Below, piece by piece: positions 10,196 to 39,729 of a DNA stretch of 64,000 nt (positions are counted from its first letter, which is position 1; the number at the start of each line of letters is the position of its first letter). Source of the DNA: Acholoe squamosa (Eukaryota; Annelida; Polychaeta; Phyllodocida; Polynoidae); contig OX439048.1 in assembly GCA_949317995.1 (NCBI GenBank), positions 23,317,495 through 23,381,494 on the forward strand, written 5' to 3'. Below the pieces are notes generated by a model that did no database searches, was not told where the DNA came from, and saw nothing but the letters and a program-made list of their open reading frames with translations. The translations under genes were made by a program, and so were the position numbers.

Positions 10196-10845
10196 TGTCA
10201 ACGGACGGTTACATGTGGTGAAGTGAATGTACACGGAATCCAGGGAAGTTCAGTTGTTCCTTTTATTGCATAGCTGACATGAGTGTTTCATAAAGGTGGT
10301 AACAATGATAACACTCGCCAAGATCTAAGCTCTGCCTCCGATCCTATAGCTCAACCTGTCGTAGGTTCTAGGTATAGGTGTAAGGTGTAAGTTGGGAAAG
10401 ATGATTGGGAGCTGCTCAAGCTGCCTTTTATATGAAGGACTTGAGCAGCTCGCAGTGTTGTGAAATATTCTATACACATGGCTCAATGAAATAGGGACAC
10501 GTGTCATAGGGAGAGATTGCCACCTGTGTGTTAATCATATTGATAACGATTGAGAGGAGATTGTGAAATATTCTCTCATTCCAAATATGGCATCACAGGT
10601 GGACCCCACATCCTCCAGCGGGGCTGTGTGGGTGTAGATATGATTGGAATGTTATTACATCTGTCTACATTATGTCACAGAGCCTCATGGAGGAAATGTG
10701 TTTGTGGTGACTAAAGGATCCTGGTTCCTGTTGAGGAATGCAGGACATTGTTGAGTATGGATCGTGAGCATAGCTTGGGTTTTATATGGCGAAGAAATTA
10801 GTAAATATGAAAAATAATAATAATACCCAGAATGGTCCATTGACA
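10196..10845 (-). repeat. 3' LTR of copy 1
   Basis: 650 bp, same length as the 5' LTR. It contains the TATA-bearing hairpin (stems at 10409-10420 and 10440-10451) and an AATAAA-type signal near its end in element sense. Confidence 0.95.
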
Positions 10846-11793
10846 AATCCCCACATTCCTACTCGTCTCTGCACGAGTGTAAAGGGAGAAAAATAAGTAG
10901 AAAAGATGAGGCTTTGCCAAGTCCATTGACGATTATGGGTGTTATTATGCAAATACTGGGTTTTGTGAAAAACCTGATGGGTTTGACATTATATGCAGTA
11001 TAAAAAAGGTTCCTTTATGGAATTACAAAAATAAAGTTTTTGTGTGGATCAAGTGACTTAATGTATATATATACAGGTTTTAAATGCCGGGATATGTACA
11101 ATGCTTAAAATATAAATGTACCGGTATGTTATCGTGGGAAAATGAAAAAAAAAATTTCTGATTTGATAACATGTTGGTTTTATGCAATAATACACAATGA
11201 AGTATATCCAGATGAAAATTAACCAAGTTTGGTGATTCTTGGTATTGTGGGGTCAACAATCAACACAAGGGTGATGAGTTTTTGGCTCCACATTACCAAG
11301 GCTCATAGCTGAGGTTGTGTAGGGTCTGCTGCACAGTCGGGTATACGGTATGAGTCAAGGTAGTATTTAGTTTTACTGTTGACTAGAACATGGTAATTTT
11401 CACGAAAATATACAAAAATGTTATGTATACAACCTGTTGATTATGGATAACTAATTTAACTAAAACTCATAAATACATGTCATAGTTGAGCTTGAAAGTA
11501 AAACAATGGTGAAGGTGATGAACTTTATAGTGCCTAGAGGTAAACCAGAAGGCCATTTTGGTCTTAGTCTCATAATGTTCATCGAAGGAAAAGAATCTTA
11601 AGTTAATATATACATTGGCCTAAAGAAAAACAGGCTTTTTAAAGAATCCAGTGAAAAAGGATTTGACATGCTGAGGGAAAAGAAAAAAAAGATTTTACAT
11701 TCTCAGAGAACAAGTAATACGTATAGGCGTGGGGGGTTGTTTACAATTGTGTCTTCATGGCTAGGTAGTACAAAAATTGAGTCTGTGAAATGT
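10846..11793 (-). other. 3' untranslated region of copy 1
   Basis: About 950 bp between ORF Y and the 3' LTR with no convincing ORF. The last bases before the LTR form the presumed polypurine tract. Confidence 0.5.
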
Positions 11794-12492
11794 CTATTTG
11801 TGTGTTCTGAAATGTCGATTAGGGTGAATGCTGTTTGGGGGTAGGTTCTGATGTTCTTTGATGTTGAAATTCTTGAACCTGCCTTCAGCCTTACGATGGG
11901 TCCTGGATCTGATGGGCCTGAATTTTGAGATGGTAATGTCGGAAAAGTCTAAGTATACTGATGCTAAGTCACCAGCTGTGGCCACATCTGATCCGTCCTC
12001 TGAGGTGGTATCTGTCTCTGTGGTAGGGGTAGGTCGAGCTGGCATGGGTTTCCACATGGTTCTCGGCGGGGATCTCTGTCTGTTACCGCTTGGCCTAGGT
12101 TTGTTGTCATAAGCACAAGGGCACAGGAACCCATTTGGTTGATGGTAACAAGGTATGCAAAGTTTGGCAGCGGATACCTGCCCACTGATGTGGCGGCAAT
12201 ACTTATTGTTGTGCCTGTAGGTTGGGGCCTGGGTGTGCCAGGCCTGCAGGCTGCCGACACATAGGTTCCCCTGGGTGTTAGATGGGGCTTTCTAGCTGGC
12301 TCCCTCCACTGGCTGGTGGAAGTTGCTGCTGGGGCTCGGGGTCCGCGGCTGGTGGGGTTGGATTTTGCCTGACCTCTTCCCTCCTGCCTCTTCCTCCTGT
12401 CGCCTTCCTTGATGATGATTGCCCCGGCTCTTCTGTCTCCAGGGCTGGAGGGCCGACGGATGGTGGGGCTGCCAGGTCTCCAGAGGAGGGGT
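11794..12492 (-). pseudogene. Accessory ORF Y of copy 1 (3' exon, basic protein), one frame change
   Basis: A strong splice acceptor (pyrimidine run then CAG, G at 12493) opens the exon at 12492. In the phase of the leader exon the frame is open to 11964. The part homologous to copy 2 then continues in another frame to 11794, so one indel lies near 12,070-12,110. The N-terminal half is Arg/Pro-rich; the middle matches copy 2 around PTGTTISIA / PTGSIALG and LMTTN / FMTTK. The C-terminal part has an acidic Ser/Thr patch and an arginine-rich stretch (RPIRSRTHRKAEGRFK). I do not recognise a family. Position near the 3' LTR, splicing and arginine-rich composition recall regulatory proteins of complex retroviruses, but this is analogy only. 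Confidence 0.55.
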
Positions 12493-12938
12493 CTGTAGGG
12501 AAGAGAGCCATGAAAAACAAACCATTAACAGAGGTGTAAGATCCTGCTTGGGTCAGCTGGTGGCCTTGTCAATACAGGATAACCAATAAGTGCTATAAAT
12601 TTCTGCTGTTCGACACATAATATTAATCTTGACAGAGCTCAATTTGATTGTAAGAACAGAACGCGGTAAGTGTAACTAAGCAAGCTTAGTTGGTTAATTT
12701 GTATCACGCTGGGTGGCAGTACCGAGCTGTCGCTTCACCGTGCTGAACCTGATTATTCAGATAAAAATCCTGAAAAATATTTCGAATCGTGGCCTAAAAT
12801 TTCATGAAGGTGGTTGAAAGGTCTCGAAGAAGGTTTGAGTTTTGGCATTCCGGCATACGGTATGCTATTTGAATTTTGAGGGTGGGGGGTCGCGGATTTG
12901 AAATAAATTTTGAGTTTTGATGCCTATAGCCTTGGCCC

Positions 12939-12946
12939 TATATAAG
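12939..12946 (+). promoter_or_regulatory. Antisense TATA box within copy 1
   Basis: TATATAAG on the strand opposite to the retroviral genes, 45 bases before an ATG at 12984. Copy 2 has TATAAAA at the homologous place (44985-44979). Confidence 0.55.
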
Positions 12947-12983
12947 ATATGGGTGCCGGCTATCTTATCAGTAGTTACGCAAG

Positions 12984-13232
12984 ATGGAGATCGTCCAAGG
13001 CGTTCTCCATTTTCCGGATGGTCGTGCGCTGTTGATTACAGTATTCATCAACGAGGACGGGACGTAAGTAATTTTGAATAAGTGGGCGTGTGAATTTATT
13101 TTGGAAAATTTTGAATTGCGAAATTTGTTTCGGGCTTTTTGGTAATTTCAATTTTGGATTTGTTTTTGTAGGATACATCAGGTCACCTACCTACTGCTGG
13201 CGCCTCAGGTGCCGGCAGTGAACGGGTTTTAG
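12984..13232 (+). CDS. Antisense two-exon ORF of copy 1
   Basis: Exon 1 is 12984-13063 (ATG to a GTAAGT donor, phase 2). The intron is 13064-13171 (108 nt), ending in a pyrimidine run and TAG. Exon 2 is 13172-13232, ending in TAG. The spliced ORF is 46 residues, hydrophobic in the middle, with no known family. It lies antisense in the gap between env and Y. Copy 2 keeps the same layout (TATA, ATG, phase-2 donor, 101-nt intron, acceptor) although the sequence has diverged a lot, which is the reason to take so short an ORF seriously. Antisense genes with this kind of position are known in deltaretroviruses; relationship is not implied. Confidence 0.5.
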
Positions 13233-13803
13233 AAGAGACATGAGTAATCCCTTTTATCATAAAGCTAGGTTGTTTGCACGTGTTGATGTTGTTGTTTTCA
13301 GTCTATGTATCAAGTCAGAACGATCATGTGACCGAAACTTAATGGATATTTGCATATCACGAAGCTCTTTAAAAATGGCGACGCCGGGTCGCGACTGGCG
13401 CGAAAATTTTGTGCAGACGTTGTGACTGCGTCTATGGTTGTGGAAAGGTCTTGCGTCGTCATTGATAAGATCTAGTGATGTGCAAGGTGAAACAATGGCG
13501 GGATATTGTGATTTGTGGGCATGGTTTTATGTATTTAGGTCGGGATGGGGCCCTATAGGGGGTCCTTGGGGGGGTCTCGGGGATTTGCCGGATAGGAGGG
13601 GGATCCCCACATCAGCGTCTCAGGGCTATCCGGTCTGCTATGTAGCGCTGTTCAGCACCTGCCATCCCCACATAAGGGTGGTGGTACCGTCCAGTGTTGT
13701 CACCGGGCTTGTGGGCGCTGGGGAGAGTCCATTATGGGAGGAACCTCGGGGGGTGGCCGGTGGAGGTTGCTGAGGATGCTGAGCGTTCTCAACGATCCCC
13801 ACA
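13233..13803. other. Non-coding gap between the antisense unit and the end of env
   Basis: GC-richer than the surroundings. It may contain upstream or downstream sequence of the antisense unit; no ORF with support. Confidence 0.35.
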
Positions 13804-16516
13804 TCAGCCGAAACTAATGGTTTTAAAATTTAAAAACCTACCATCCATGGTGTCAATGGCCCTCTCAGCCAGTGTAGGGTCGAATAAGTATAGGTCCTTA
13901 GGTGGCTGGGTTTCCCTGAGTTGTAGCAGGGCCATCTCTGCTGGAGTTGTCCCACTGGTGGAGGCCTTAGGGGCTTCCCGCCTGAGTAGGTCTTTTCTCC
14001 GTGTCAAAGGTGGCACTGGTTTGTAGCTGGCTGATAGTTCATATTCACTTGGTGTGAGTTGGAAGTCAGGCTGGTTTTCCTGTACAATGGCCGTGTGGGG
14101 TCTGGATCTGAGGATGATTGTGAGGGGGATGCGCCAGAGCAAAGGGCAACTGGGGTATCTCTCCAGCCTCACCGTCCTCAGTCTTCCACCAATGATCATT
14201 CTGATGTCTGACTTCCAATGCGCATCAAGATGACGGGCTAGGGGGAAAGTTAACCTGGGTGGTGCTAGTTTGGGTGCCAAGATGGATGCTGGCCAGAGGT
14301 TCCTTCCATACACCATTAGTCCCACTGGAAAGGCATATGTGTGCCCTCCAGAGTGTATCTTCAGCACGAATCTTGGGGTGCCGGTGGCGGGGTCCTGTCT
14401 GCCGTAGGGCCAATGCCTAAGACAGCGTCTCCCCGCCGCTTTGATGAATAGCAAGCTGAGGATGATGCCTAGGAAGGCAATCATGGAATCATACCTTCCT
14501 GGCATTTGAATCCAGTCAGGTGTAGTGATCTCCTGGGGTGTGGTCCGCGTAGGCCAATTTTGGTTGGTGTTCTTAATCATTTCTTTAAGCTTGTTCCAAG
14601 ATGCTGCGTCAGCCATCGTTGTTCGACTGTGAATGGTCACTAATTGGGCTAAGTATGCCACGCGCATGTGTACACGGCACGTGACCAGGCAGCACAAGAT
14701 GGCGATGGTTGGCGACAACAAGTGTAACCAAGGGGAAAACTCCAGGTGATATCCTAGATGTATGAGTGAGTTGGTGCTCAGGATGGATGACTTATCATGA
14801 ATTTTGGTGGCAGCGCCTTTTAGGTTCAAAATGTCCTTAAATAGGGGTAGAAATTTTTGGTTGTGAAGGCGCTTTAGGCGCTGAAAATTTGGTAGGTCTA
14901 GGTGGGTCGGGGTGGTTGCTATGGTTACTCCTGATATGTTGTTTGGCGGGTTACCAAAATGCCGCCATAGTGGTAAATTGACAGGCACTTTGGCAATGGG
15001 TTCTAGAGTAAAGTTTTGGGCGCAGGATAGATCGGAATTAATCATTATCGTGCCTCTGTTTTTAAGAGAACAGAGGCATGGCACTGAAATAATAGAGTAG
15101 GCTGCATTTTTGATCTCGATTTGGCCTGAGTTTGAGCATTGCATTATTGAAGGTGAAAAACTAGTGATCAGCATGTAGGAGCTTTGGGAGATGGGTTTAG
15201 CAATGTTGGGAATTGGTGCTGTCATGTGTGCTCGAAAATTGCAGGTGTTATGTACAGCGTCAGGTAGATCTAAAAATAGGGATAAGCTGCAGGTGAGGTA
15301 CCTAGGAGATAACATGGGCAGGGGCAGGTTGCATGTTATAAAAACATCTACGTCACAAAGATCTAAGTCGGAGTGGTCCAGTTCAATGTAGTGTGACTGG
15401 GACACAGACATAGCTATATAATTAGGCAAAGGCTGTATCTGTGTAAACCCAGTAGTGTTTACATTGGTGGTGTCAAATGGGACTGGGAAGGCCTCCGCTC
15501 TATATATGGAGTAGATGTTGTCTCCCAGTCCTATGGGTATAGGCACTGTGATGTAAAGTTTGTTTTGGTTCTGCCAGTGCACGTGCACTCTCCTTTTGTA
15601 ATAGAAACCGGTGGGTACATTAAGAATAGTGATACCCTTATTGGCTTCATACAAGGAGCTTGATAGATTATTAAGTCCATCTTCCATAACTTTATGGGGA
15701 ATTAATTTTGGAGGTAGCTCACCTTCCGTTAGAGTGGTTAGTGAGTCCAGAAGGATGTCTAAATCATTTTGCAGGTTCATTAGTACTTCAATCTGAGAGT
15801 TAGCAGCGGTGAATAACATCGAATGATAGGTGTCTTGTCTGCTCTGTTGTTCCAGGTTGAATAAGATATTTGATACATTCTTACTCAAGAGTTGGAGGTT
15901 GGAACTGAGCAGGGCCAAGGCGTCATCTGTGTTATTTTGCATGCTGGAGAAGATGCTCAGAGATTGATAATTAAATTCAGAAATGTTTAAGAGAAAATGT
16001 GTGGCTAATTCTACCACATGCATTTTAGTAGCTAGGGTTTTCTCTAAGTCGGATATTTCGGAATTCAACAAGTCTACTTCAGGTTGCGTGCTCAAGCCAA
16101 TTGATGCTCTTAAAATATCGCCTACGATCTGTCCTGGGGCACCTCTGGGTGTTCTCGTTTGGGGATGTTCCAAAAATTTTATTAACAGGGCTAAAGATTT
16201 TTGAGATTTTTGGTAGAGATTTGCCAAAATTAGGTCTTAAGTTTGGGCGGTTTCCAAGATAAAATTTGGGGCATTTTTGCTGACTAGGGAGGTTAATTTG
16301 TCCGGTCGCTGCAAGGATTGATTGAAGGATAGGTCTAAAGCGAAAACTAATGGGTAATCCATATATCCTGAGATCATTTTCTGGGGTATTTTAGTGAATA
16401 GAACACCATAGTTTGGCCTGAAGATGGTCTCTTCTTTGGTTACAAAATCCTGTGCTCCTGACTGTTGGGTCTGGGCGCACATAATTAGGAAGAGTGCTGC
16501 CAAGGAGGCTGCCATC
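13804..16516 (-). pseudogene. env: Envelope glycoprotein, baculovirus F/errantivirus-like, with one stop (copy 1)
   Basis: The frame opens right after an acceptor (AG at 16518-16517), with ATG at 16515, and runs to 13804 apart from one in-frame TAA (16239-16237). In order: hydrophobic signal peptide; a region with IVGDILRASIG followed by heptad-like helices (LLNSEISDLEKTLATK), as in class I F-type fusion subunits; Leu-rich coiled coils; a Cys-rich domain with regular pairs; a membrane anchor near 14,670-14,720; a second hydrophobic segment near 14,430-14,490; then a tail of about 200 residues. The order fits the Baculo_F family fusion proteins of insect errantiviruses. No clear multibasic furin site was seen. 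The tail and second membrane segment are conserved in copy 2. Role: membrane fusion of an enveloped particle, now interrupted. Confidence 0.75.
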
Positions 16517-16535
16517 CTAAAAATAGAAATTTAGA
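16517..16535 (-). promoter_or_regulatory. Splice acceptor of env (copy 1)
   Basis: A T-rich tract and AG end one base before the env ATG; that one base completes a codon with the phase-2 leader donor at 17704. Confidence 0.65.
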
Positions 16536-16927
16536 TAAGTTTATGAGAAAAGGATTATATGAGACTGAGATAGGACTGTTGTCCGGGGTGAGATGGGTCA
16601 TTTTTAAGGGTTTTGGGTTGGGGATTTGGCTTTGTGTGAGGTATGTTTGTGTAGATTGGGCGGTGGGTGTCCTATACATATGGGGGGGGGGGTCGCTTGG
16701 TTGTGTGCGGTGTGAATGTGGCGCTTTGGGGCGTGTTATTTAAAGGTTATCAGGTTGCTAGGCTGATATCTTAACTAGCAAGGATGTCTCCATCTTAGTC
16801 ATGTAAAGAAAAAAAAAAATTCTAGTGAGAAGAGAGAAAAAAAGAATTGTAGGAAAGTAATTGATTTTTAACGTTGTACATGTGTAGGGGGGGGGGGAGA
16901 AATGGGTCAATTCAGGGCTGATAGCTT

Positions 16928-17411
16928 TTAACTGTGTAAGTGGGAGTATCTAGCCATCTCAAACGCTGCCAGCTGGGTCTGAAGATTTGTTGATTGGATT
17001 ATGACATTGTATCTGCCAATACCTGTTTCATATCTTGGTAGCTCTTTAAGTGGTTTCTCTGAGGTAATCAGAGTTCTGGCACATAGGAGTGCTATATAGC
17101 TTGATGTTTCCTCACTGAATCTGTCCCACAATGGGACTGTGGGGAAATCTTTGCATAGGTCGAATATCATGGCCTTGGTGGCCGATAATACAATTGGGTC
17201 TTGTAGGGTGAGCTCTTTTTGAACTGTTTTGTTGTTTAGGTATACACCTAAGTCTTCGCTGGATATACGTTTGATCATGTCTTTGTGCTCCATGATAGTT
17301 ATTCTGATCTCGAACAGATCCATGGCCTTACTTTTGATGCCGTTTGGGCCTAAAAGACTGTGGATGGTTCACCCTCAGTTGGCTCCATGTCTAACTTCTG
17401 GGGCTCTAAGG
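16928..17411 (-). pseudogene. Accessory ORF X of copy 1
   Basis: An acceptor (CAG, G at 17412) opens the exon at 17411. The frame that matches the leader exon continues to 16928 but has TGA at 17377-17375 and 17371-17369. From the internal ATG at 17323 a 131-residue protein is intact. Copy 2 (40257-40707) is homologous throughout: MD(L/P)FEIR, then SYIALLCARTL(I/L), then EKPLKELPR / EQPLRDLPR. Predicted mainly helical, soluble, no Cys cluster and no known family. Placement between pol and env, with its own acceptor, makes it a genuine extra gene rather than part of Env. Confidence 0.65.
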
Positions 17412-17703
17412 CTGTTGTGAATAATAAGAAAAAGGTTTGATAGGTTTGTTGTTTGACTAAGATAGATGAATGGGCTGATGGGGGGTTTTGTCAAGAGGTT
17501 GATAACTAAGGTAATGAAAGGTCAGGCTGCCATACATGGTTTTGAGAAAGGACTGCAAATTCAACTATTGCATTTTACAAAGCACTCTGGGCGCACACTA
17601 CCATTGGCATGTAATGGGTATCTGGGCAACATGATGGTAGATTCCATCAGTCATGCTAGAACGATTGATGACGCTACTAATGGACACATAAGACCGATCC
17701 TAC

Positions 17704-17765
17704 CTGGGCTTCTTGCATGGCAGTCCCGACACTTGGGTCCTGTGGTCTCCGGATGCTTGCTCCAT
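17704..17765 (-). CDS. Leader mini-exon with ATG and phase-2 splice donor (copy 1)
   Basis: ATG at 17765, 20 codons plus two bases, then a donor (CCCAG/GTAGGA). Copy 2 has the equivalent at 39940-39968 with the same AGCCCAG/GTAGGA donor. The phase fits the acceptors of X (17411), env (16516) and Y (12492). The peptide is short and hydrophilic with no recognised motif. Its job is inferred: it supplies the start codon to spliced mRNAs. Confidence 0.6.
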
Positions 17766-17828
17766 AGTGGCTGGATGTGGTGAGTTTGGTGTATTTGATA
17801 AGAGTGGTTAAGGTGGGGGTGGTGTGAG

Positions 17829-17990
17829 GCTTATAAGCACTTCATGAGGTTGGCTAATTCCTCATTACATGCCTCCCGATAAGGTATGTCTCACCCATAT
17901 GTGGCACGGGGCCTAGCTATTGGTTGGTTTGCATACACCTGATCATCGTGATATGCAAATTTAATGGACCTTTATGGGGTGCGGATGATC
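17829..17990 (-). promoter_or_regulatory. Conserved internal promoter-like block (copy 1)
   Basis: On the minus strand: octamer ATTTGCAT, then a CCAAT box, then AGACATACC, then GCTTATAAGC (17829-17838), 73 bases before the leader ATG. Copy 2 shows the same order (39730-39858) though the surroundings are diverged. Confidence 0.55.
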
Positions 17991-18688
17991 ATTGGATGAT
18001 CTGAATATTGTAGTTATGAAAGGGGGGTTGATGGTTGTGGTGCTGAGATAAGTCAGCCTGCCGGGGTGCACTTGTTCCTGTTGTGATAACACAGCAGGGA
18101 GCTGTGCTGAATATTTTGATTAAGTGTCTCACCAAACATTCCAGTGCTGATGGTAAACAGAGGCATAAACATGGATCAGGATGTCTAGGTGCTGCTCTCC
18201 TACAATAGGTGGTCATTTGGTAATACTTTAGGGTATAGAGGAGCCCTGAGCTTGTAACAAACCGGCGCATGCGTGTTCCTAAGATTAGGATCCACGAACC
18301 GAGAATACGCTGTGACCTTGGGTAATTTATGTGGCGTGCCAACCTTAATCAATCATTATATGACTGTCTGAGTCTCAAACCCTAGATAAAATTCTTGACA
18401 ATGTCCCATCAGTAAAAGTAAGCCAGAAGGCCTTTTGGGGTTTGTGTAGAAATTTTGATGTTAAAGGTAATTGGTATGTGGTTTGGATGATAAAAAAATA
18501 AAAAAAAATAAATGATGAGAAAAAGAAAATTTGTGGGGAATAACATCATTGCACGAAATAACACATGGCCAAAACTGCCACCGGTTGGAGGTGAAGGTGG
18601 AGAGGTGTGTGTGAATGTGGGGGCGTTAAGGTGGGTGTTTTGGGGGGGAGAGAGAAAAAAAAAAAAGGATTGTGTGTTTTCTGCAAAT
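17991..18688. other. Non-coding between pol and the internal promoter (copy 1)
   Basis: About 700 bp with A-rich tracts; no supported ORF. The copy 2 equivalent (39069-39730) also lacks one. Confidence 0.4.
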
Positions 18689-21600
18689 CTACTTCTTTTT
18701 TGTGGACTTCTTCTTTGTCTTCTTTTTTGGGGAAGGGGCAGAGGTGACAAGTCCTTTCTTTGCAGGTCGTCTTCTTTTCTTTTTGACTGCGGGGGATTCT
18801 GGTTCACCAATGTGGGTGGAATCTAGATCAGGGTCATACAAGGTGTTAACTGGCCCAGACTGCAGTCTTTTGATCACAGCCTTGGCGCTAGCCTTGGTGA
18901 TTGGTCTCCTTAATCTAGATACATGTATTGATTTTTTCAATACTTTACCATCCTGTAGCCTTTTTAATTTTGCAGTTACTGGTGAGGTCATTTTCATTAT
19001 GATATATGGTCCACTATAGGTGGCCTGCAGCTTTTTGCTCGTTTGTTTGACCAACAGGTTAGGTATGTGTAAATACACAAGCTGACCTGTGTTGTAGGTG
19101 CATGGAGAAGCAGTGGCGTCATGTCTGGCTTTCATCTTTTTATGGTATTTGACCATGCTCTCAGCTGCCTTAAGTTGGATGTCATCTCTTAAACTGAGTA
19201 AGGCGGTAACCAATTTTTCCTTGTCTTTGATCTCTTCAGTTTGTTGGACCAATGAGAGGGAGGACTCAGTTGGGAGATGTGTTTGTTTTCCAAATACTAA
19301 AAGACTGGGTGAGTATCCTAGCACGCTGTATACAGTGTTGTTTATACTGAATGCTATAGCCTGTAGGAAAGTCGACCAATGTTTCTGTGATTTGGAGACA
19401 AAGGCTCTGAGTGAAGATTCTATTGTTTGATGTTGACGCTCACATAGACCTTGTGATTTTGACCAATGTGCACTCCCTGTCACATGTTTGATGCCGAATT
19501 TGTCACAAAAAGATGTAAAATATTTGGACACATACTGTTGTGCGTTATCTGTGTTCAGGACTGATGGGGATCCAAAAACACAAATAACCCTTTGGAAAAA
19601 TCCTAGCGCTACTTCGGCGCTGGTGTTATCCTTTGTGGCCCAAACAGTGATGTGCCTGGTAGCATGATCTGTGACAACATGGATAAATGAGGATCCATCC
19701 ACAGCAGGTGTGAAAGGACCGATGGTGTCCATGGTAAGGTGAGTGTAGGCCGTAAAAACAGGGTCTCTCAGGGTCATTGGGGTTCTCAGGTGTTTTGGTC
19801 TTTTCTTTGTTGTGAGACATGTGTGGCAAGTGCCACAGTAGTCGAAAACATGTTTGAACATGGAACGCCAATAATACCTGGATCTGATTGCTGCATACGT
19901 TTTAGTGGGACCAAGGTGTCCTCCTAATGGTGAGCAGTGTGTGGCCTCAATTAGTGATTCTGCCCATTTTTCTGGTATCACTATTTGTAGTGTAGGCTCT
20001 AAACTGTCTCCATAGGTTGATTTGGTGATCCTGAATAAAACTTCGTCTAAAATCATGAACTGGTCATGGTTTAGCAGTATCTGTTTGCTAAGGCTGGGGT
20101 CCTCTGGTAATTCACCCTTATTGATGTATGACAGCATGGAGTTTGAGAAAACATCCTCCTGCTGTGCCTGTATCAGTGTCTCCCTGGATGGGGTTAGGGA
20201 GTGGTGTTTACATAGCTGGCTTATCGCTCGTTCAGCCATGGGTAGCACTTTGTGTGATAGCTTAGCCCTTCTGGTATTAGCTAATTTCACTGATACTCTG
20301 GGTGACCTAGATTTTGGTGGTCGGCCCCTTGTTTTGGTCTTGGTGTCCTTGACCTTAGTGGGGCGGGTCTGTTTACTTCTGGTTGATTTGCTGGGCTGAG
20401 GGGGTGTGGCTAGGTCTGGTAACTTGGCTTTAGATCGAGTTAAAATGCACAGCTCGGGCACAGTTTGAATAGAGCTGAGTTTTTCTCTCTCAGAGCTACC
20501 TTTCTTGGCAATCACACCCTTTGGCTTCTTGGAAGTGCTACCCCAAATCTGTCCTCCTTTTAGTATGGACCTAGGTGGTCCCATGAGGACTGGATTTTTG
20601 GGAATTGGGTCATTTGATTTGAAGACTTTGGTCATGGTAATGTCGGAGAATTTGACTGATTTAGGAGGTAGTATTATTTTACCTTGAGACCTGATTGGAA
20701 TTGGGTCATCAGAGCCGGGCGGATATTTCCTCCTGGAGAGAAAGTCTGCCACGATATTGGCTCTGCCTTGCAGGTACCTGACTTCAAAGTCGTAGGACAT
20801 GACTGTGTCGACCCACCTGGCTAACCTTCCATTGGTTATATTTTCCTTTTTGTTGAAAAGGGAAACCAGGGCGGTGTGGTCCGAGTATACTTTGAAGTGA
20901 GTTCCATCCACATAATGGTGGAACTTTTTGACTGCAAAAACTATTCCCAACAGTTCTTTATCAGTTATCCCATACCTAGACTCTTGAGGTGTCAAACCTC
21001 TTCCTGCAAATTCAATCGGTCTATAGAAACCATAGTCATCTACCTGAGTGATTACAGCTCCTAAGCTGTAGTTGCTTGAGTCGGTGAAGATGACAAAAGG
21101 TCTCTTATAGTCTGGGAATTTCAGCACAGCATCAGTACAGATAGCAGCTTTAATTTTTTCAAAGGCTCTCTGACACTCAGTGGTCCATTTAAAGGTGCTT
21201 TTTGTCGCCTCATAAAGGGGCTTCATGACATGAGCAAAACCTCTGATGAACCTTTTGTAAAACTGCGCCATACCATTGAAACATCTAAGATCATGGATGT
21301 TTTTAGGTGGGGGGAAGGTTTTGACAGGTCCTATTTTGTCCGGGGATGGTGACAAACCATGCTGGTCTACATTGAAACCCAAAAATTCCATTTTGGTAGT
21401 TCCAAATTCGCATTTTTCTGATTTCAGTTTGATGTTTCCTCTGATAAAAAGTTTTAAAACCTTGTCCAGATCTTGTAAGTGCCTTTCCCACGTGGGGCTG
21501 TAAATGGCCACATCGTCCACATATGCTACAGCATTTTTATACTTGCATTTCATGAGGAGTTGTACCATTACATTCATAAAGGATAGGCCTGAAGTTTTGA

Positions 21601-23191
21601 GTCCCATAGGGAGAACTTTGGCCATGTATCTCGTGCCATTAGCAGAGAAAGTGGTAAGTGGCCTAGATTCTTCTGCTAGGGGAATCTGGTGGTAGGCGCT
21701 GTAGACATCCAATTTGGAAAAATATTTGGCGCCCGTTCTGCCTATCTGCTGCATGAGGTCGTCAGCTCTGGGGAATGAGTAAGAGAAAGTCTTTAAATTC
21801 TCATTTACCCATCTGTAGTCAACTACAATTCTCCAACCAGAGGCTACTGACCTGTCACCTTGTGGTTTCGGCACTAAAAAGGCGGGTGAGTTCCACTCAC
21901 AGGGTTTGGTACACTCTTCTATTATCCCCTGTTCTAAATGTTTTTTCAGGAGTTCCCTTTGAAAAATTTCTTTGTGAGGGGACATCCTATACGACGGTCT
22001 GTTGCAGGGTTTGAAGTCTGGTTTTAATTCAAGTTTAACTTCATTTTCTACATTGAGACCTATGGCGCTTTCATTTAGGACAAAGGCTTGCCTATTGGCC
22101 TCAACAATGTTTTTGATCTGTTGCCTTTGAATTTCAGAGAGTTTTTCACAGATTTTATACTTCAAAGGTTCATTCCCTTTGGGGAGTTGGTCCATGGGAT
22201 CCTCTCCACAATTGATTGGGAATAAGTCCTTTTCTGTTGTTACACTGTTGAGTGAATGGGCGCTATTGAGTGCACCAATGGGTACAGCCTTTTTGATGTT
22301 GAAAAGTCTAAATACACCGAGGTTCATGTGTCTTTTTATCTTGATGGGGAAGTCATTTGGGTTAGCTACTGTTACTGGTACTATTTTAAGGTCTGATCTA
22401 GGTTTAACTATTGCGTGCTTAATAAGTACCGGTAGGGTAGAACCTGAGTTCTCAGTCAATCCAGTTTTTCCCACAATGTTGCTATTCCCTATCACGACCG
22501 CATTGAAAGTGGCTTCAGTGTTTGGTGGAATATCAACATTTTTGTTTGCCCTGATGTAGTTGGGCGATGGGGGGGTCGGTCCAAAGGAAATTTTGGCTTT
22601 GTATTTGGTCATGAAATTTACTCCTAAAATTAGGGGATGGTTCAGCTCAGGTACCACATGGAATCTGGATCTGAATTCATGGCCACCAATGAGGAATGTT
22701 ACAGTCATGGAGTGATTTACTTGGATGGGTGTTTTATCAGCCAATAAAACTGTCAGTCGCGCGCGTCTCCCGTGTCTGAAATTTGGAGTGTTCGCGATTT
22801 TGTCAGCCATTTTTTGGCTAATAAAAGAAAGTGAGGCGCCGGAGTCAACAAGAGCTCTATACAAGTGGTTATTTATGTCTACAGAAACTGCACCCTTGGT
22901 TAATTCTGTATCAACGTAAATGGCCTTACCTTGCTGCCCATGCTGCTCGGATTTGATCCTCAGTTTCAGGATTGAAGTCCTCTGGCTCTGGTCCTCATAC
23001 TCGTCCTCGTCATCACTGGAGTCTGAATTCTCATTGGTGTTTAAGAAGTTGGTATAATTCAAACTGAATGATTGGGAGTCTACTGAATTCATTTCTGCAT
23101 CAGCGTCTCGAGAAGTGTCCTTGGATAATTTGATGGTCGTGGTCCGGGTGGGGTCGGGGTCACTAGGTGCTTGAGTGCCTTCCCCTGATCC
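18689..23191 (-). CDS. pol: Pol polyprotein: protease, RT, RNase H, integrase (copy 1, intact)
   Basis: The frame is continuous with gag across the UAG; the first Met is at 23092 (1467 residues from there). The aspartic protease has VDSGAS (D83). RT has YVDD (524-527), preceded by LDVYSAYHQIPL. RNase H begins with FTDSS (D671) and includes DHTAL. A connector rich in Lys/Pro follows. Integrase has an HHCC-type zinc finger (ending CGTCHTC), then the D, D-x35-E core (MDTIGPF, NTDNAQQY, GLCERQHQ) and a GPY/F module (YSGPYIIMKM), then a long basic tail ending at 18689. No chromodomain. Typical Ty3/gypsy order. No internal stop, in contrast to env. Confidence 0.95.
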   Translation of the reverse strand, partial: GSGEGTQAPSDPDPTRTTTIKLSKDTSRDADAEMNSVDSQSFSLNYTNFLNTNENSDSSDDEDEYEDQSQRTSILKLRIKSEQHGQQGKAIYVDTELTKGAVSVDINNHLYRALVDSGASLSFISQKMADKIANTPNFRHGRRARLTVLLADKTPIQVNHSMTVTFLIGGHEFRSRFHVVPELNHPLILGVNFMTKYKAKISFGPTPPSPNYIRANKNVDIPPNTEATFNAVVIGNSNIVGKTGLTENSGSTLPVLIKHAIVKPRSDLKIVPVTVANPNDFPIKIKRHMNLGVFRLFNIKKAVPIGALNSAHSLNSVTTEKDLFPINCGEDPMDQLPKGNEPLKYKICEKLSEIQRQQIKNIVEANRQAFVLNESAIGLNVENEVKLELKPDFKPCNRPSYRMSPHKEIFQRELLKKHLEQGIIEECTKPCEWNSPAFLVPKPQGDRSVASGWRIVVDYRWVNENLKTFSYSFPRADDLMQQIGRTGAKYFSKLDVYSAYHQIPLAEESRPLTTFSANGTRYMAKVLPMGLKTSGLSFMNVMVQLLMKCKYKNAVAYVDDVAIYSPTWERHLQDLDKVLKLFIRGNIKLKSEKCEFGTTKMEFLGFNVDQHGLSPSPDKIGPVKTFPPPKNIHDLRCFNGMAQFYKRFIRGFAHVMKPLYEATKSTFKWTTECQRAFEKIKAAICTDAVLKFPDYKRPFVIFTDSSNYSLGAVITQVDDYGFYRPIEFAGRGLTPQESRYGITDKELLGIVFAVKKFHHYVDGTHFKVYSDHTALVSLFNKKENITNGRLARWVDTVMSYDFEVRYLQGRANIVADFLSRRKYPPGSDDPIPIRSQGKIILPPKSVKFSDITMTKVFKSNDPIPKNPVLMGPPRSILKGGQIWGSTSKKPKGVIAKKGSSEREKLSSIQTVPELCILTRSKAKLPDLATPPQPSKSTRSKQTRPTKVKDTKTKTRGRPPKSRSPRVSVKLANTRRAKLSHKVLPMAERAISQLCKHHSLTPSRETLIQAQQEDVFSNSMLSYINKGELPEDPSLSKQILLNHDQFMILDEVLFRITKSTYGDSLEPTLQIVIPEKWAESLIEATHCSPLGGHLGPTKTYAAIRSRYYWRSMFKHVFDYCGTCHTCLTTKKRPKHLRTPMTLRDPVFTAYTHLTMDTIGPFTPAVDGSSFIHVVTDHATRHITVWATKDNTSAEVALGFFQRVICVFGSPSVLNTDNAQQYVSKYFTSFCDKFGIKHVTGSAHWSKSQGLCERQHQTIESSLRAFVSKSQKHWSTFLQAIAFSINNTVYSVLGYSPSLLVFGKQTHLPTESSLSLVQQTEEIKDKEKLVTALLSLRDDIQLKAAESMVKYHKKMKARHDATASPCTYNTGQLVYLHIPNLLVKQTSKKLQATYSGPYIIMKMTSPVTAKLKRLQDGKVLKKSIHVSRLRRPITKASAKAVIKRLQSGPVNTLYDPDLDSTHIGEPESPAVKKKRRRPAKKGLVTSAPSPKKKTKKKSTKKK

Positions 23192-23200
23192 CTATTCATC
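23180..23200 (-). promoter_or_regulatory. Gag-pol stop-codon readthrough site (candidate)
   Basis: GAA-UAG-GGA-UCA-GGG: an amber codon followed by a G, with pol open in the same frame. Murine gammaretroviruses suppress a UAG with a purine-rich 3' context in a similar way; here it is inferred. Confidence 0.55.
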
Positions 23201-26149
23201 TTGTGTGTTATTGGGGCTGTCATTGTCGGCCTCAGACTGAGACCCTGAATGGCTTCTGGAGTAGTTCCTGCCTGGGGTTGGATCTCTGGATTTCTTCAAT
23301 GACTGTTGTACCCAATTGTCTGGGATGGTGAAGTCAGCTGGGACCATGAAGGAGACATTTTTATTGTTATTTGGCTGTCCAGCAACTGGTATGAAGACAA
23401 AACTTTTGTTGCTATCGGAGGATCTTGACCTTTGTTCTGATCTGTCTTTTGACCTATCTCTTCCTGGGGACTTATAGTCAGATCTATTTTTGGAATTAGA
23501 TCTGTAGTCTTTGGGATTGGATCTGTCTGAAGACTTGGACCTTCCTCTGTAACTGTTTTTGAATTTATTTTCATACTGTTTGTTGTAGTTACTACTGGGC
23601 AGTCTGTCTTCTTTCTTGTGGTCGCGCTGATATTTATCCTTCCTGGATCTGTTGTCATCCTTGTTGTAGCCTACTGCACATAACTCTGCTGAGCTATTCT
23701 GAGCAATTTTTATGGCCTCGAGGTTCAATTCTTGATTTATGGCTAATTCTTCAGCTTCCAGCAAGGTCTTGTGAGACTTAGCTACAACAACATTTTTCAG
23801 CTCGGGTCTGAGGCCATTTACAAGGTAGTCCACTTGTGAAGCCTCGTCCAGGCTGCTGTTGGACAACAACATGGTCATGTCTGCAAGGTAATCCTCAGTG
23901 GTTTCATTTGGCTTTTGTTTCCTGGCTCTGTATCCCTTGAGGATGGTACTGAGGTCGGGAGTGCCAAATCTCGCCAAGAAAGCTTCATAGACGGCGTCAT
24001 TGTTTTGCATGATGGGTTTGTCCATTATGTTGCTGAAAAACCACTGAGCTGCCCTCCCTTTGAGAAAAGTGTACAGGCAAGTTGCATGTAGGTCAGGCCT
24101 CTTGGCATGCACATTCCTTATGAAGAACTTAAATTCAGTCAGAAATTTTGCTGCAGACCTGTAGGGCGTCGGTTTATCAAAAGGTTCAGGCTTGTTGAAT
24201 GAGCCTAACTGGGCAGATGTGAGCTTGTCGCTGTCCATTCTACTAGGGGAAAATCTGGTGTACTCAGCGCCATGGTATCCTCCCTGGTGCACTACCGGTG
24301 TGGAGTGTGCTATATGATCATACCTAGGAGGATATGGTAGTCCAGAGTGGTTGCTTGTTTGTCCTTGGGGACTGTAAACACCATTAACCACATGGCCACC
24401 GTGTTGCTTTGGATTAGGCGCTGTGTTACAAGATGTTGTCGCCCCCTGGTGGGTGTTTGGTGCACTAGCTGTTGGAGATTGGTGCAGTGCGTGTGATGCT
24501 GTGTATTGGTTGTCTTTGAAAGCATGTGGTGGGCTCATCCCTGCTCCTGTCATGTCATTGTGGCTGGTGCTGTAGTCAGGTGCCGTGGGGTAAGGAGGAG
24601 TGGATTGTGCATGCCCTGAATTGCCTTGGGCGCCGGTGGCGGTTTGGTTGGGGTTGGTGGCGTCAGCACTGTTGGAATGGCTTTGAATGGCCCTCATTAG
24701 GTCAAGCCTCATTGAGTCCATGTTTTTGCTTAGCTGGTCAGTCATTTGATATGTGAAATCCTCGGATCTTCTGAGAACTTCCATATTGCCTTGTTCTGCC
24801 TGCCTGAAGTTGTGGGCGGTGTTGCATTCCATATTCTCCTTCCAGCGTTCCATGTCATCTAACCTGAGGTGTACTCTAGCCAACTGATCTGAGTGTTCTT
24901 GTCCATGATTTTTAATTTCAGTGGATAGGGTGCTCACGTGTTTGGCTAATAGCTCAGAGAGAGACTCACTGACAGCGTTAGTGCAGTCCCTGACAAGACT
25001 TCTCCTCATGTCCTCCTGGTCATACTGAGGGGGCTGGCCTCGGGACATTGCCATATTGGGTCGGCGGGGAAAGGTTACTTCAGTATCTTCTTCAGGTGAA
25101 CCGATAAGGTGAGGTGAGTTGTAAGGCGTCCTGTTGCCTCTATTGAGTAGCGGGGTTGTAGCTACGAGATGAGATCTGCTTGTAGCTCCGTCCACACTTC
25201 TCAGTAGTCTGTAACCAGTGGGGGTTCTTCTTCTAAGAGGTGAACTTGATTGGGCCCTCCTTCTAAATCTAGAGGCTTGTCTGGATGGTGAGTCCACTGA
25301 CCTGGTTCTAAGTGGCTGTGTAGGTGTGTACACAGGTGGGGGGTACAGGTCCTCCTCTTCAGATGTGGATTGGTATCGGTTTGGCTGGGTAATGGTAGGG
25401 TCAAGCCACTCATCCAATAGTCTATTAATGTTGAGTGAGAAGTTTGGATTGTCTCCTACCGGGTGTCCAGAGTCGTTATTGGAAACCCTGCCTACACCGT
25501 TTTCATAGGCTGCTCTCCACCTAGAAACTGCTGATCCGATTCTGTCTCTCCAGTAATCAGCGTCTAGGGAGGCGTCAGAGTCTGTGTCCACAACCACTGG
25601 CTCCTCACAAACTGGTAGTTTATGTGAAGTTACACCTGGATTAGTTTGTGCTGCAGATGCAGGTGCCCTAGGTGTTGTGGGTTGTGTGGGGGTGATGTCC
25701 TGGAGGGCGGCTTGAAGCTCTGGTGTTCTGTCCTCCAGGTGTGGGTCGAGGTACAAATGGCTCTGAGTATTGTCCACTGGTACTTCAGAGGTTGGGCTAG
25801 TTATACCAGAAAGTCTTAGTGGCGGTGAATTTACTTGCGAGTAACCAGGTAAGGTGATGTCTAATCCTGGTGCAGATAGTGATACTGGCGTACTGGTGTG
25901 TGCTCCAGTATTGTGATCCACTATTGTAGAGGAAAATTGCTCAATACCAGTACTCACAGGTTGTAATACGTGGGCCTGCAGTGCTATAGGTAAAACTGGA
26001 TCCAATGTCAGGGCGTCTGGAGATGAAGTTTGCCTCTGGAGGGGATGTGTAGTATCACTTGTGGGTTGGTTGGGCGCGTCTAGCCCAGGTGATGTAAAGG
26101 TGCATTGTTTTGAAGCTGGCTCCTTAGGTGATGTCTCACTATTGCTCAT
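23192..26149 (-). CDS. gag: Gag polyprotein (copy 1)
   Basis: 985 residues, unusually long. The N-terminal 350 are Pro/Thr/Ser-rich and apparently disordered; helical stretches with coiled-coil character follow (about 380-460); a Ty3-type capsid domain lies at about 650-830 (RAAQWFFSNI, YRARKQKPNETTEDYL, LVNGLRPEL). The C terminus is Arg/Ser/Lys-rich (about 835-925). No CCHC zinc knuckle; the basic RS-rich tail probably replaces it for RNA binding. The ATG at 26149 is only 52 bases from the 5' LTR. The ORF ends in UAG (23194-23192), and pol follows in the same frame. Confidence 0.9.
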   Translation of the reverse strand: MSNSETSPKEPASKQCTFTSPGLDAPNQPTSDTTHPLQRQTSSPDALTLDPVLPIALQAHVLQPVSTGIEQFSSTIVDHNTGAHTSTPVSLSAPGLDITLPGYSQVNSPPLRLSGITSPTSEVPVDNTQSHLYLDPHLEDRTPELQAALQDITPTQPTTPRAPASAAQTNPGVTSHKLPVCEEPVVVDTDSDASLDADYWRDRIGSAVSRWRAAYENGVGRVSNNDSGHPVGDNPNFSLNINRLLDEWLDPTITQPNRYQSTSEEEDLYPPPVYTPTQPLRTRSVDSPSRQASRFRRRAQSSSPLRRRTPTGYRLLRSVDGATSRSHLVATTPLLNRGNRTPYNSPHLIGSPEEDTEVTFPRRPNMAMSRGQPPQYDQEDMRRSLVRDCTNAVSESLSELLAKHVSTLSTEIKNHGQEHSDQLARVHLRLDDMERWKENMECNTAHNFRQAEQGNMEVLRRSEDFTYQMTDQLSKNMDSMRLDLMRAIQSHSNSADATNPNQTATGAQGNSGHAQSTPPYPTAPDYSTSHNDMTGAGMSPPHAFKDNQYTASHALHQSPTASAPNTHQGATTSCNTAPNPKQHGGHVVNGVYSPQGQTSNHSGLPYPPRYDHIAHSTPVVHQGGYHGAEYTRFSPSRMDSDKLTSAQLGSFNKPEPFDKPTPYRSAAKFLTEFKFFIRNVHAKRPDLHATCLYTFLKGRAAQWFFSNIMDKPIMQNNDAVYEAFLARFGTPDLSTILKGYRARKQKPNETTEDYLADMTMLLSNSSLDEASQVDYLVNGLRPELKNVVVAKSHKTLLEAEELAINQELNLEAIKIAQNSSAELCAVGYNKDDNRSRKDKYQRDHKKEDRLPSSNYNKQYENKFKNSYRGRSKSSDRSNPKDYRSNSKNRSDYKSPGRDRSKDRSEQRSRSSDSNKSFVFIPVAGQPNNNKNVSFMVPADFTIPDNWVQQSLKKSRDPTPGRNYSRSHSGSQSEADNDSPNNTQDE

Positions 26150-26201
26150 GTTTAATGAGAGGTTGGTAGTGGGATATTCTTGGAGGGTTCATCCACCATC
26201 G

Positions 26202-26851
26202 TGTCAATGGACGGTTACATGTGGTGAAGTGAATGTACACGGAATCCAGGGAAGTTCAGTTGATCCTTTTATTGCATAGCTGACATGAGTGTTTCATAAA
26301 GGTGGTAACGATGATAACACTCGCCAAGATCTAAGCTCTGCCTCTGATCCTATAGCTCAACCTGTCGTAGGTTCTAGGTATAGGTGTAAGGTGTAAGTTG
26401 GGAGAGATGATTGGGAGCTGCTCAAGCTGCCTTTTATATGAAGGACTTGAGCAGCTCGCAGTGTTGTGAAATATTCTATACACGTGGCTCAATGAAATAG
26501 GGACACGTGTCATAGGGAGAGATTGCCACCTGTGTGTTAATCATATTGATGAGGATTGAGAGGAGATTGTGAAATATTCTCTCATTCCAAATATGGCATC
26601 ACAGGTGGACCCCACATCCTCCAGCGGGGCTGTGTGGGTGTAGATATGATTGGAATGTTATTACATCCGTCTACATTATGTCACAGAGCCTCATGGAGGA
26701 GATGTGTTTGTGGTGACTAAAGGATCCTGGTTCCTGTTGAGGAATGCAGGACATTGTTGAGTATGGATCGTGAGCAGAGCTTGGGTTTTATATGGCGAAG
26801 AAATTAGTAAATATGAAAAATAATAATAATACCCAGAATGGTCCATTGACA
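26202..26851 (-). repeat. 5' LTR of copy 1
   Basis: 650 bp. In element sense the TATA (CATATAAAAGG, near 26440-26429) sits in the loop of a 12-bp hairpin (stems 26415-26426 and 26446-26457); an AATAAA signal lies at 26273-26268. Confidence 0.95.
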
Positions 26852-33742: not shown

Positions 33743-33770
33743 GATTCTTTCTACCTATTGTGAAACCTTT

Positions 33771-38600: not shown

Positions 38601-39068
38601 TGATTTCCGCTCACAAAAAGATGAAAGCCAGACATGACTCTTCAGCAGAACTCAGCTCATACAACACAGGCCAGTTGGTATATTTACATATACCTAACCT
38701 GCTGGCCAAATGCACATAAAAAAAAGTTGCAACCCACATACTCAGGCCCCTACATCATAATGAAAATGACTTCAACAGTCACAGCCATTTTAAAAAGGCT
38801 ACAAGATGGAAAAATACTGAAGAAATCAGTACATGTATCAAGGCTAAGGAGACCAATCACAAGAGCTAGTGCCAAAGCCATCATAAAAAGGCTACAATCA
38901 GGGCCCACAAGCTCACTTCATGACCCCGACCAGGATGACCCCTCCAATGTGAGTCTCACCACTCCCAAAATAAAGAAAAAGAGAGGAAGGCCAGCCAAAA
39001 AGGGCACAATCTCCTTCAGCCCCATGCCCTCCAGAAAATCAAGAAAAATTCCTAAGCGTCCATTATAG
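35664..39068 (+). pseudogene. pol: Pol fragment of copy 2 (RT, RNase H, integrase)
   Basis: Keeps YVDD, FTDSS, the integrase zinc finger (CGTCHTC), the DDE core and GPY/F module. Lesions: a 55-bp retroinsert with target duplication at 36728-36808; an in-frame TAG at 36878-36880; a frame change in an A run near 38,720. It ends at 39068 with a basic tail like copy 1. Confidence 0.9.
36741..36795 (-). mobile_element. 55-bp SINE/LINE-type retroinsert in pol of copy 2
   Basis: Flanked by perfect 13-bp repeats CAGATATGGAATA (36728-36740, 36796-36808). Read on the minus strand it ends in an AAAC repeat tail. The GTTTTACGTCC core resembles the dispersed SINE-like repeat in the palindrome. A 5'-truncated retroposition. 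Confidence 0.75.
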
Positions 39069-39729
39069 ATCACAAGACATCGTAAAACACTCACCACCTA
39101 TAAAAACCCCCCCTCCTTTAATCCCTACAGGCGCCACGCGCCCTAACCAAATTAATCAACCATTAATATCCCAACCACTTAAACACACTGACAGCAACAG
39201 TCACAGCCCAACACCCAACCTATTAATACTAACAACCATAAAAATTCCTATGTACCCAAAATCAACACTATCTTGATTAATTACATATACAACTACCTAC
39301 CCCCTCTAAGTGGAACGCCAAACACCGGCAAATGGATTATCAGATAATTAGGCTAGGTTACCCATGCCACATACTGACCGCCCAAGGCAGCGCTGTATCC
39401 TCGGTTTGTGTATAAACTTAAAAAAACACATGCGATGGCTTGTTACCATTTCAAGACCACTATTTCCAATGATATACCTATTGTAGGAAGATGGATCTCT
39501 GACACCCATACCCTATGTTTATACCACTGTTTGATTTGTATATGTGCTGCGGTGGCACATATACAAATCAATAACACGCCACCCTCAAGGTCTTTAAGAC
39601 CACAGGGTTGCCATAGCAACCATATCACCTTGGTCAGGGATAAACACCCCCCGCCAAACTCCCCAATTTTCTATTTTTAGACAATACCTCACTGCCAACC
39701 AATCCAGGCCAGGATTGCCCTAATTTGCA
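39069..39729. other. Non-coding between pol and internal promoter (copy 2)
   Basis: No supported ORF. It contains a short inverted repeat around 39,510-39,570 (TTGATTTGTATATGTGC and its inverse). Confidence 0.4.

What the first reader, a model, noticed from the sequence alone, without database searches (positions are those of the whole stretch)
12492..17765. One leader mini-exon feeds three in-phase acceptors (X, env, Y) in a gypsy retrovirus
Seen: in copy 1 an ATG exon (17765-17704) ends in a phase-2 donor, and acceptors at 17411, 16516 and 12492 each open into a frame that fits that phase. In copy 2 the same holds for 39940-39968 with 40257, 40948 and 45512. Six of six junctions agree. Chance agreement of phase alone is about 1 in 700, before counting the conserved donor and acceptors. 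The env of copy 2 has no ATG of its own at the start, which this scheme explains. A shared N-terminal leader peptide for two accessory proteins and Env is not something I know from Ty3/gypsy elements.
Basis: partly seen in the sequence, partly recalled or inferred. Interest (0 to 1): 0.92.

Follow-up and report, generated by a model that had tools for sequence, protein, structure and literature searches.

The report
Shared start exon in gypsy provirus
Two old copies of a virus-like genome parasite share a tiny exon between two of its main genes that probably lends its start signal, by splicing, to an accessory gene and the envelope gene; similar tricks are known in complex retroviruses and partly in fly relatives, and a third claimed target is not secured.

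Summary
Partly confirmed. Copy 1 is a full-length 16.7-kb Ty3/gypsy provirus with a baculovirus-F-type env; copy 2 is 5'-truncated. Both carry a phase-2 ATG mini-exon between pol and X, the donor at the same aligned place inside an identical 13-base run. It is the only donor of 36 and of 17 scored with a strong-context open ATG within 100 nt and phase 2. The X acceptor is aligned in both copies; the env acceptor scores second of 1090 and first of 709, where env similarity begins. X has no in-frame ATG in its exon ahead of its conserved block. Leader-to-X and leader-to-env splicing is the likely reading. 'Six of six' is overstated: three of six junctions reach the conserved protein through an open frame. 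Copy 1 X and copy 2 Y close after 11 and 6 codons; copy 1's Y acceptor enters another frame than the one matching copy 2. The copies are homologous, so phase agreement is worth about 1 in 9, not 1 in 700. New here: a second aligned donor at the 3' end of env, and octamer/CCAAT/TATA-like sequence upstream of the leader. Spliced short-peptide env exons are published for fly errantiviruses, one AUG for Env, Rex and R3 for BLV. No RNA evidence.

The parts
10196..26851 (-). Copy 1, full-length element: LTR 26851-26202 and 10845-10196 (98.3% identical over 650 nt), 4-bp target duplication ATAC
   Evidence: self-BLAST; flanks; sequence
23192..26188 (-). gag frame, 998 codons from stop to stop; ATG at 26149
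   Evidence: weak Ty3_capsid match E=3e-4, below Pfam cut-off
18689..23191 (-). pol frame, 1500 codons, open: protease, RT, RNase H, integrase; same frame as gag, separated by one TAG
   Evidence: Pfam
17830..17960 (-). Promoter-like stretch: octamer ATTTGCAT (17960), CCAAT (17923), TATAAG (17835)
   Evidence: each aligned to its counterpart in copy 2; octamer and TATA lie in identical runs; functional labels recalled, chosen after looking
17704..17765 (-). Leader mini-exon of copy 1: ATG in strong context, 62 nt, phase 2; unspliced frame stops at TAG inside the donor
17698..17710 (-). Identical 13-mer AGCCCAGGTAGGA spanning the leader donor
17570..17701 (-). Conserved block in the intron just after the leader donor (identical runs of 12, 7, 7 and 9 bases)
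   Evidence: only 2 of 21 predicted pairs with a both-sided change
16928..17411 (-). X of copy 1: exon from 17411; frame closed by two TGA codons upstream of the conserved block
13804..16516 (-). env of copy 1: exon from 16516, own ATG as first full codon, one internal TAA at 16239; Baculo_F type
13840..13841 (-). Second aligned donor (D2), GT 35 nt before the env stop codon, env phase 1
11797..12492 (-). Y region of copy 1: exon from 12492; the frame resembling copy 2 is 12291-11797, not the leader-phase frame
35665..47240 (+). Copy 2, internal part from RT to about the start of the 3' LTR; 5' part missing; pol and env broken
   Evidence: LTR start by eye
39723..39857 (+). Promoter-like stretch of copy 2: octamer 39723, CCAAT 39760, TATAAG 39852
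39940..39968 (+). Leader mini-exon of copy 2: ATG in strong context, 29 nt, phase 2
40257..40707 (+). X of copy 2: exon from 40257, 149 codons open from the acceptor
40948..43596 (+). env region of copy 2: exon from 40948, no in-frame ATG until codon 49, several breaks
43583..43584 (+). Second aligned donor (D2) of copy 2, GT 11 nt before the env stop codon, score 6.2, env phase 1
45512..46075 (+). Y region of copy 2: exon from 45512; leader-phase frame closed by TGA at 45531; C-terminal block in another frame

Best explanation
These are two divergent endogenous copies of one env-bearing Ty3/gypsy lineage whose 3' half is expressed by alternative splicing. A short coding exon between pol and X supplies the ATG, 20 (copy 1) or 9 (copy 2) full codons and two further bases, and ends in a phase-2 donor. 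Splicing it to the X acceptor or to the env acceptor gives X and Env their start codon and a common N-terminal peptide. Without splicing the peptide ends at a TAG inside the donor, so unspliced RNA yields only a stub. Shown from sequence: sites, phases, alignment between copies, coding signal starting at the X and env acceptors, X without an ATG of its own in its exon. Inferred: that the sites are used; that the leader peptide is part of both proteins. Undecided: the partner of the Y acceptor (leader donor, or D2 at the end of env), and whether the leader exon is a first exon made by an internal promoter or an exon spliced from the 5' LTR transcript.
For: Donor at the same aligned place in an identical 13-mer. 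The only donor of 36 (copy 1) and of 17 (copy 2) with score >=2 that has a strong-context open ATG within 100 nt and phase 2. X acceptors aligned exactly; 40-column identity goes from 0.28-0.40 (windows starting 17566-17466) to 0.48-0.70 (17446-17306) at the X acceptor. X lacks an in-frame ATG in its exon before codon 30 in both copies, while the block TIH(S/D)LLGP upstream of that ATG is kept in both and in P0001, a 49%-identical relative from an unnamed source that has no Met at that aligned place (one four residues earlier, still after the block). Third-position excess from the X acceptor on (differences 5/6/12 by codon position over 14 codons, 63/42/85 over the next 135 pairs) and from the env acceptor on (37/22/61 over 87 pairs). 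Env acceptors are second and first of all AG sites scored. Of the 8 donors with score above 0 between 26420 and 25500 of copy 1, 7 lie after the gag ATG and 1 of these (25520, score 0.8, 629 nt into gag) fits phase 2.
Against: No RNA. Copy 1 X has two in-frame TGA between acceptor and conserved block, and copy 1 env an early TAA. Copy 1 env has its own ATG directly after the acceptor, so the leader ATG is not strictly needed there. Copy 2 X has an in-frame ATG at 40246, 11 nt upstream of its exon, usable without splicing. The ATGs of the two leaders are not at the same aligned place: 17765 aligns to 39914. X acceptor scores are modest (2.6 and 3.5). Strong acceptors occur at about chance frequency. 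The intron block just after the donor is as conserved as the exons (0.43-0.73), so conservation alone does not mark exons. P0001 reads open about 57 codons upstream of the block, and from its residues no AG can lie at the exactly matching place (by hand).
Confidence: 0.62

Rival explanations
1. (Not exclusive.) The Y acceptor is used from the second donor D2 at the 3' end of env, not or not mainly from the leader. The product would be an Env with another C-terminal tail, or simply removal of the env-Y interval from the 3' untranslated part of X or env messages.
For: D2 is aligned in both copies (13841/43583, scores 4.8 and 6.2); of 6 aligned donor pairs scoring above 2 in both copies, it and the leader are the only two above 4.5 in both. 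In copy 2 these two are the only donors of score >=4 from 39066 to 47240. In D2 phase the frame after the Y acceptor is open 70 codons in copy 1 and 43 in copy 2; in leader phase it closes after 6 in copy 2.
Against: The two tails show no clear similarity by eye. All three frames after the copy 1 acceptor are open for 66 codons or more, so openness there says little. The frame resembling Y is reached from neither donor without a break in copy 1.
Confidence: 0.35
2. Env starts from its own ATG after a conventional splice and only X, or neither gene, takes the leader; copy 2's missing env ATG is plain decay.
For: Copy 1 env has ATG as its first full codon after the acceptor. Copy 2 is broken in pol and env.
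Against: The env frame agrees with leader phase in both copies despite different lengths of the first stretch; of the donors near the copy 1 gag start only a weak one fits phase 2 - though phase matters less if Env uses its own ATG.
Confidence: 0.2
3. (Concerns the 5' end only.) The leader exon is not a first exon but is spliced from a 5' LTR transcript at an acceptor upstream, as in ordinary retroviruses.
For: AG pairs at aligned places upstream: 18199/39487 (scores 1.2/1.8, in an identical 13-mer) and 18000/39681 (-0.4/4.8).
Against: No acceptor scores above 2 in both copies between pol and leader. Such exons would carry 10 and 4, or 7 and 1, ATGs ahead of the leader ATG. No strong donor near the copy 1 5' end (best 3.1 at 25957).
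Confidence: 0.35
4. Chance: the mini-ORF is an unspliced short upstream ORF and the acceptors are random T-rich AG sites.
For: Acceptor counts are near chance level; three of six leader-phase frames are closed early or lead into another frame.
Against: Exact alignment of donor and X acceptor in copies only 54% identical there; uniqueness of the leader; copy 1 X has no ATG before codon 30 of its exon.
Confidence: 0.12

Closest known systems
Insect errantiviruses (ZAM/Beagle, springer, idefix subclades; gypsy)
   Same: Ty3/gypsy pol, Baculo_F-type Env, Env start codon or N-terminal peptide supplied by a spliced upstream exon (PMC12992720 passages; PMC2585583 passages)
   Different: In the passages read the donor lies upstream of or inside gag and only env is mentioned; here it lies between pol and X and probably serves X too. 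This element is 16.7 kb with two extra genes and long noncoding stretches.
Bovine leukemia virus env/rex/R3
   Same: Env, Rex and R3 share one AUG; R3 and Rex share 17 N-terminal residues, through alternative splicing (PMC1839114 passages)
   Different: A Retroviridae member with an unrelated envelope; from recall, Env there reads on from the AUG without a further splice, whereas here the exon would be spliced to env
Cer1 CERV of C. elegans
   Same: Ty3/gypsy-family element with a five-exon spliced accessory protein that shares peptides with another product (PMC10309623 passages)
   Different: Shared exons are from gag; no env; similarity of CERV to X or Y was not tested
Foamy virus internal promoter (Tas/Bet)
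   Same: A second plus-strand promoter for accessory messages (PMC3185809 passage)
   Different: That promoter lies near the 3' end of env; here the promoter-like stretch lies before X and env and is untested

Membership tests
Errantivirus-like Metaviridae (Ty3/gypsy) | gag then pol with order PR-RT-RH-IN | tested here: met
   Pfam; gag only weakly matched, below cut-off
Errantivirus-like Metaviridae (Ty3/gypsy) | Baculovirus F-type Env | tested here: met
   copy 1: PF12259 E=1.7e-7, 30.6 bits over cut-off 24.1; the three copy 2 env pieces gave no match of their own but match copy 1 env
Errantivirus-like Metaviridae (Ty3/gypsy) | TG...CA LTRs and short target duplication | tested here: met
   LTR starts TGTCAATGG, ends TTGACA; ATAC on both sides
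Errantivirus-like Metaviridae (Ty3/gypsy) | Place in the RT tree | not tested
   no tree was built
Errantivirus-like Metaviridae (Ty3/gypsy) | Spliced env message | not testable with these tools
   sites present, no RNA
Complex retrovirus (deltaretrovirus type) | Retroviral-type Env | tested here: not met
   Env is Baculo_F
Complex retrovirus (deltaretrovirus type) | Accessory proteins from multiply spliced messages sharing a start exon | tested here: inconclusive
   sites and phases fit for X; Y undecided
Foamy virus-type internal promoter | Transcription start inside the element | not testable with these tools
   only sequence motifs

The most novel reading that the evidence does not exclude
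A Ty3/gypsy retrovirus with an F-type envelope has evolved the gene expression of a complex retrovirus on its own: an internal octamer/CCAAT/TATA promoter between pol and env starts a first exon carrying a universal start codon and leader peptide, which is spliced in one phase to X, to Env and to a 3' gene Y, with a second donor at the end of env switching between messages.
Probability: 0.27. Interest if true: 0.75.

Novelty: new variant of a known kind. Interest (0 to 1): 0.5.

Why it matters
Complex expression (accessory genes, shared start exons, internal promoters) is, to my knowledge, mostly told as a story of vertebrate retroviruses. If an F-enveloped Ty3/gypsy lineage built the same thing, it arose more than once and ties a modular start-codon supply to having an envelope and accessory genes. 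It also warns that ORF-based annotation, which asks each gene for its own ATG, will miss or mis-start such genes in proviruses of this kind.

Tried and rejected
More copies: the genome search was asked the same way 11 times and never answered. Viral contigs gave no relative of X or of pol, genome contigs none of X; those tools may leave out the window's own genome. The protein collection gave one relative of X among 474 candidates at E<=0.01, none of env at E<=1e-5 among the 8000 candidates scored, none of Y at E<=0.01 among 61. Solved structures: nothing useful for X (best E=0.15); env weakly matches a 'fusion protein' entry at E=0.03. The X fold is too poor to use (mean pLDDT 42). No Rfam family at gathering score, no tRNA by ARAGORN in the window. 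An RNA structure in the conserved intron block: 2 of 21 pairs with both-sided change from two sequences, not evidence.

Rejected as arguments: the 1-in-700 figure; the missing ATG of copy 2 env; raw acceptor strength. Y codon statistics: the frame matching copy 2 is no better by global identity (27%) than shifted controls (28%, 31%); only local matches support Y (25% over 85 residues, 41% over 44). Dropped row: the 'pol piece' was entered in a wrong frame and is not used. Troyka (PMC12440569, first of five parts read) was set aside because its LTRs end CG...CG. HTLV-1 passages (PMC3185741) and insect piRNA passages (PMC13172572) were seen and not relied on beyond pointing to Chary and Hayashi. 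That metazoan survey is not held; I know it only from citations, so an earlier description there cannot be excluded.
Full report
What is there. Copy 1 is a complete element on the minus strand, 26851-10196, with 650-nt LTRs 98.3% identical, TG...CA ends and a 4-bp duplication ATAC. It has a gag frame of 998 codons (weak Ty3_capsid match below cut-off), a pol frame of 1500 codons with protease, RT, RNase H and integrase, and an env matching Baculo_F at E=1.7e-7. Copy 2, on the plus strand from about 35665, lacks the 5' part and is broken in pol and env. Where aligned, the copies are 73% identical in pol, 54% from the end of pol to the start of X, and 59% in env. The host is not known to me.

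The leader exon. Copy 1: ATG at 17765, 62 nt, donor at 17703. Copy 2: ATG at 39940, 29 nt, donor at 39969. Both are phase 2 and both frames, if unspliced, stop at the TAG that is part of the donor. The donors align exactly inside the identical run AGCCCAGGTAGGA. Among 36 donors of score >=2 in copy 1 and 17 in copy 2, five and two have a strong-context open ATG within 100 nt, and only the leader has it in phase 2. The two ATGs are not at the same aligned place (17765 aligns to 39914); read by eye, the two leader frames can be aligned with in-frame length differences.

X. The acceptors 17411 and 40257 align exactly, with modest scores (ranks 31 of 1090, 20 of 709). Identity rises at the acceptor (0.28-0.40 to 0.48-0.70), but the block just after the leader donor, inside the intron, is as high (0.43-0.73). 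From the acceptor to the conserved block both copies have 14 codons in the same frame, with base differences 5/6/12 by codon position, and 63/42/85 in the following 135 pairs. This looks like coding sequence without an in-frame ATG before codon 30 in either copy, although the block TIHSLLGP lies before that codon and is shared by P0001 with one change. So X seems to need a start from upstream. Against: copy 1 has two TGA in those 14 codons, and copy 2 has an in-frame ATG at 40246 just upstream of the acceptor. P0001 (210 residues, unnamed source, DNA not available) is open about 57 residues further upstream; from its residues an AG at the exactly matching place is impossible, though others nearby are possible, so it neither supports nor refutes the phase.

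Env. The acceptors are second of 1090 and first of 709 AG sites, and protein similarity begins at the acceptor in leader phase (differences 37/22/61 over 87 pairs). Copy 1 has an ATG as first codon; copy 2 has none until codon 49. Copy 1 env stops at a TAA after 92 codons, copy 2 after 220.

Y. The acceptors score well (8 of 1090, 3 of 709), but the DNA around them does not align convincingly (44% identity). In leader phase copy 2 closes after 6 codons; copy 1 is open for 175 codons, but in a frame without significant similarity to copy 2's Y. The similar frame in copy 1 is 12291-11797 (E=3e-4 against 6.3 for the other frame). That frame is open for 66 codons from the acceptor to a TAG at 12294. 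So Y does not count as a phase agreement in copy 1 and is interrupted in copy 2.

A second donor. Of 23 copy 1 donors above score 2 in the aligned part, 6 have a donor above 2 at the aligned place of copy 2: three in pol, the leader, one at 13841/43583 and one in the repeated motif just after it. The 13841/43583 donor lies 35 and 11 nt before the env stop codon in env phase 1 (sequence). It and the leader are the only donors of score >=4 from 39066 to 47240 in copy 2; copy 1 has seven of score >=4 from 18690 to 10846. It may pair with the Y acceptor; the frame then entered is open 70 and 43 codons. This would explain the long stretch between env and Y as an intron, and makes the leader-to-Y claim one of two options.

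Upstream of the leader. Between pol and the leader both copies have about 900 nt without a long shared frame (one short match of 29 residues). Octamer ATTTGCAT, CCAAT and TATAAG sit at aligned places, with octamer-TATA distances of 125 and 129 nt; octamer and TATA lie in identical runs of 10 and 8 bases. Other CCAAT copies occur too. The leader ATG is the first ATG after the TATA-like box in both copies. No acceptor scores above 2 in both copies upstream of it, though weak aligned AGs exist at 18199/39487 and 18000/39681. An internal promoter is therefore plausible; the motifs were picked after looking, and their meaning is recalled.

State of copy 1. The gag and pol frames have no break other than the TAG between them, while X, env and Y do, so this copy's lineage may have moved without using its 3' genes. 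Two decayed copies cannot show present-day selection on the phase.

Chance. Phase of homologous copies is inherited; two well-supported junction types give 1 in 9. Acceptor numbers are about as expected by shuffling (6 against 5.3; 7 against 4.9), donors 5 against 2.0 and 2 against 1.7. The case rests on alignment, uniqueness and X's missing ATG.

Known relatives. Env spliced from a short peptide exon is reported for fly errantiviruses (PMC12992720, passages) and a spliced start codon for gypsy (PMC2585583, passages). A multi-exon accessory protein is known in Cer1 (PMC10309623, passages). One AUG for Env, Rex and R3 is known in BLV (PMC1839114, passages). Foamy viruses have an internal promoter (PMC3185809, passage). 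The listings (titles and starts of abstracts; 20 of 138, 19 of 19, 20 of 43, 20 of 78, 20 of 33, 15 of 23, 4 of 4 and 5 of 6 papers shown) held none that announces a leader exon between pol and env shared with an accessory gene in Ty3/gypsy. The main metazoan survey was not readable here.

Noticed in passing
23192-23194 (-): gag and pol of copy 1 are in the same frame, separated by a single TAG followed by a purine-rich stretch: a stop-codon read-through arrangement as recalled from gammaretroviruses, rather than a frameshift. The 95 nt from the TAG fold no better than shuffles (z=1.5). Copy 2 lacks this part.
   Followed up: partly
13804, 13673, 13612, 10856 (-); 43615, 43715, 47231 (+): The 10-mer ATGTGGGGAT occurs 7 times in the 64-kb window, all in the two elements: once just before each 3' LTR (polypurine-tract position) and 2-3 times just after env; about 0.1 expected. 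It may mark extra plus-strand primer sites or an old 3' end.
   Followed up: partly
39982-40173 (+): A 63-codon ORF with a hydrophobic N-terminus and Cys residues starts shortly after the leader's TAG inside the copy 2 intron; read by eye, the matching stretch of copy 1 is not open.
   Followed up: partly
18150-18350 (-) / 39360-39530 (+): Conserved stretch between pol and leader with a weak protein-level match in one frame (29 residues, 41%, E=3e-4); coding or regulatory, undecided.
   Followed up: partly
10196-26851: Copy 1 keeps gag and pol open while X, env and Y are broken.
   Followed up: no
7023-9519 (+): RT ORF followed by a tyrosine-recombinase (Phage_integrase) ORF, flanked by repeats 5459-5638/9735-9914: a DIRS-like element (class name recalled).
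   Followed up: partly
56153-64000: Inverted repeat with two 3419-nt arms (100%; 99.4% over 3811 nt), each with a 346-codon chromodomain ORF, 4 residues different (Pfam on one of the two); real palindrome or assembly effect.
   Followed up: partly
31775-34172 (-): Three ORFs that look to me like Maverick/adintovirus genes; no Pfam match at E<=0.01.
   Followed up: partly
16821 and 11670 (-): A strong acceptor (score 6.4) between X and env in copy 1 without a counterpart in copy 2; the strongest acceptor of the copy 1 3' half (9.5) is at 11670, after Y.
   Followed up: no
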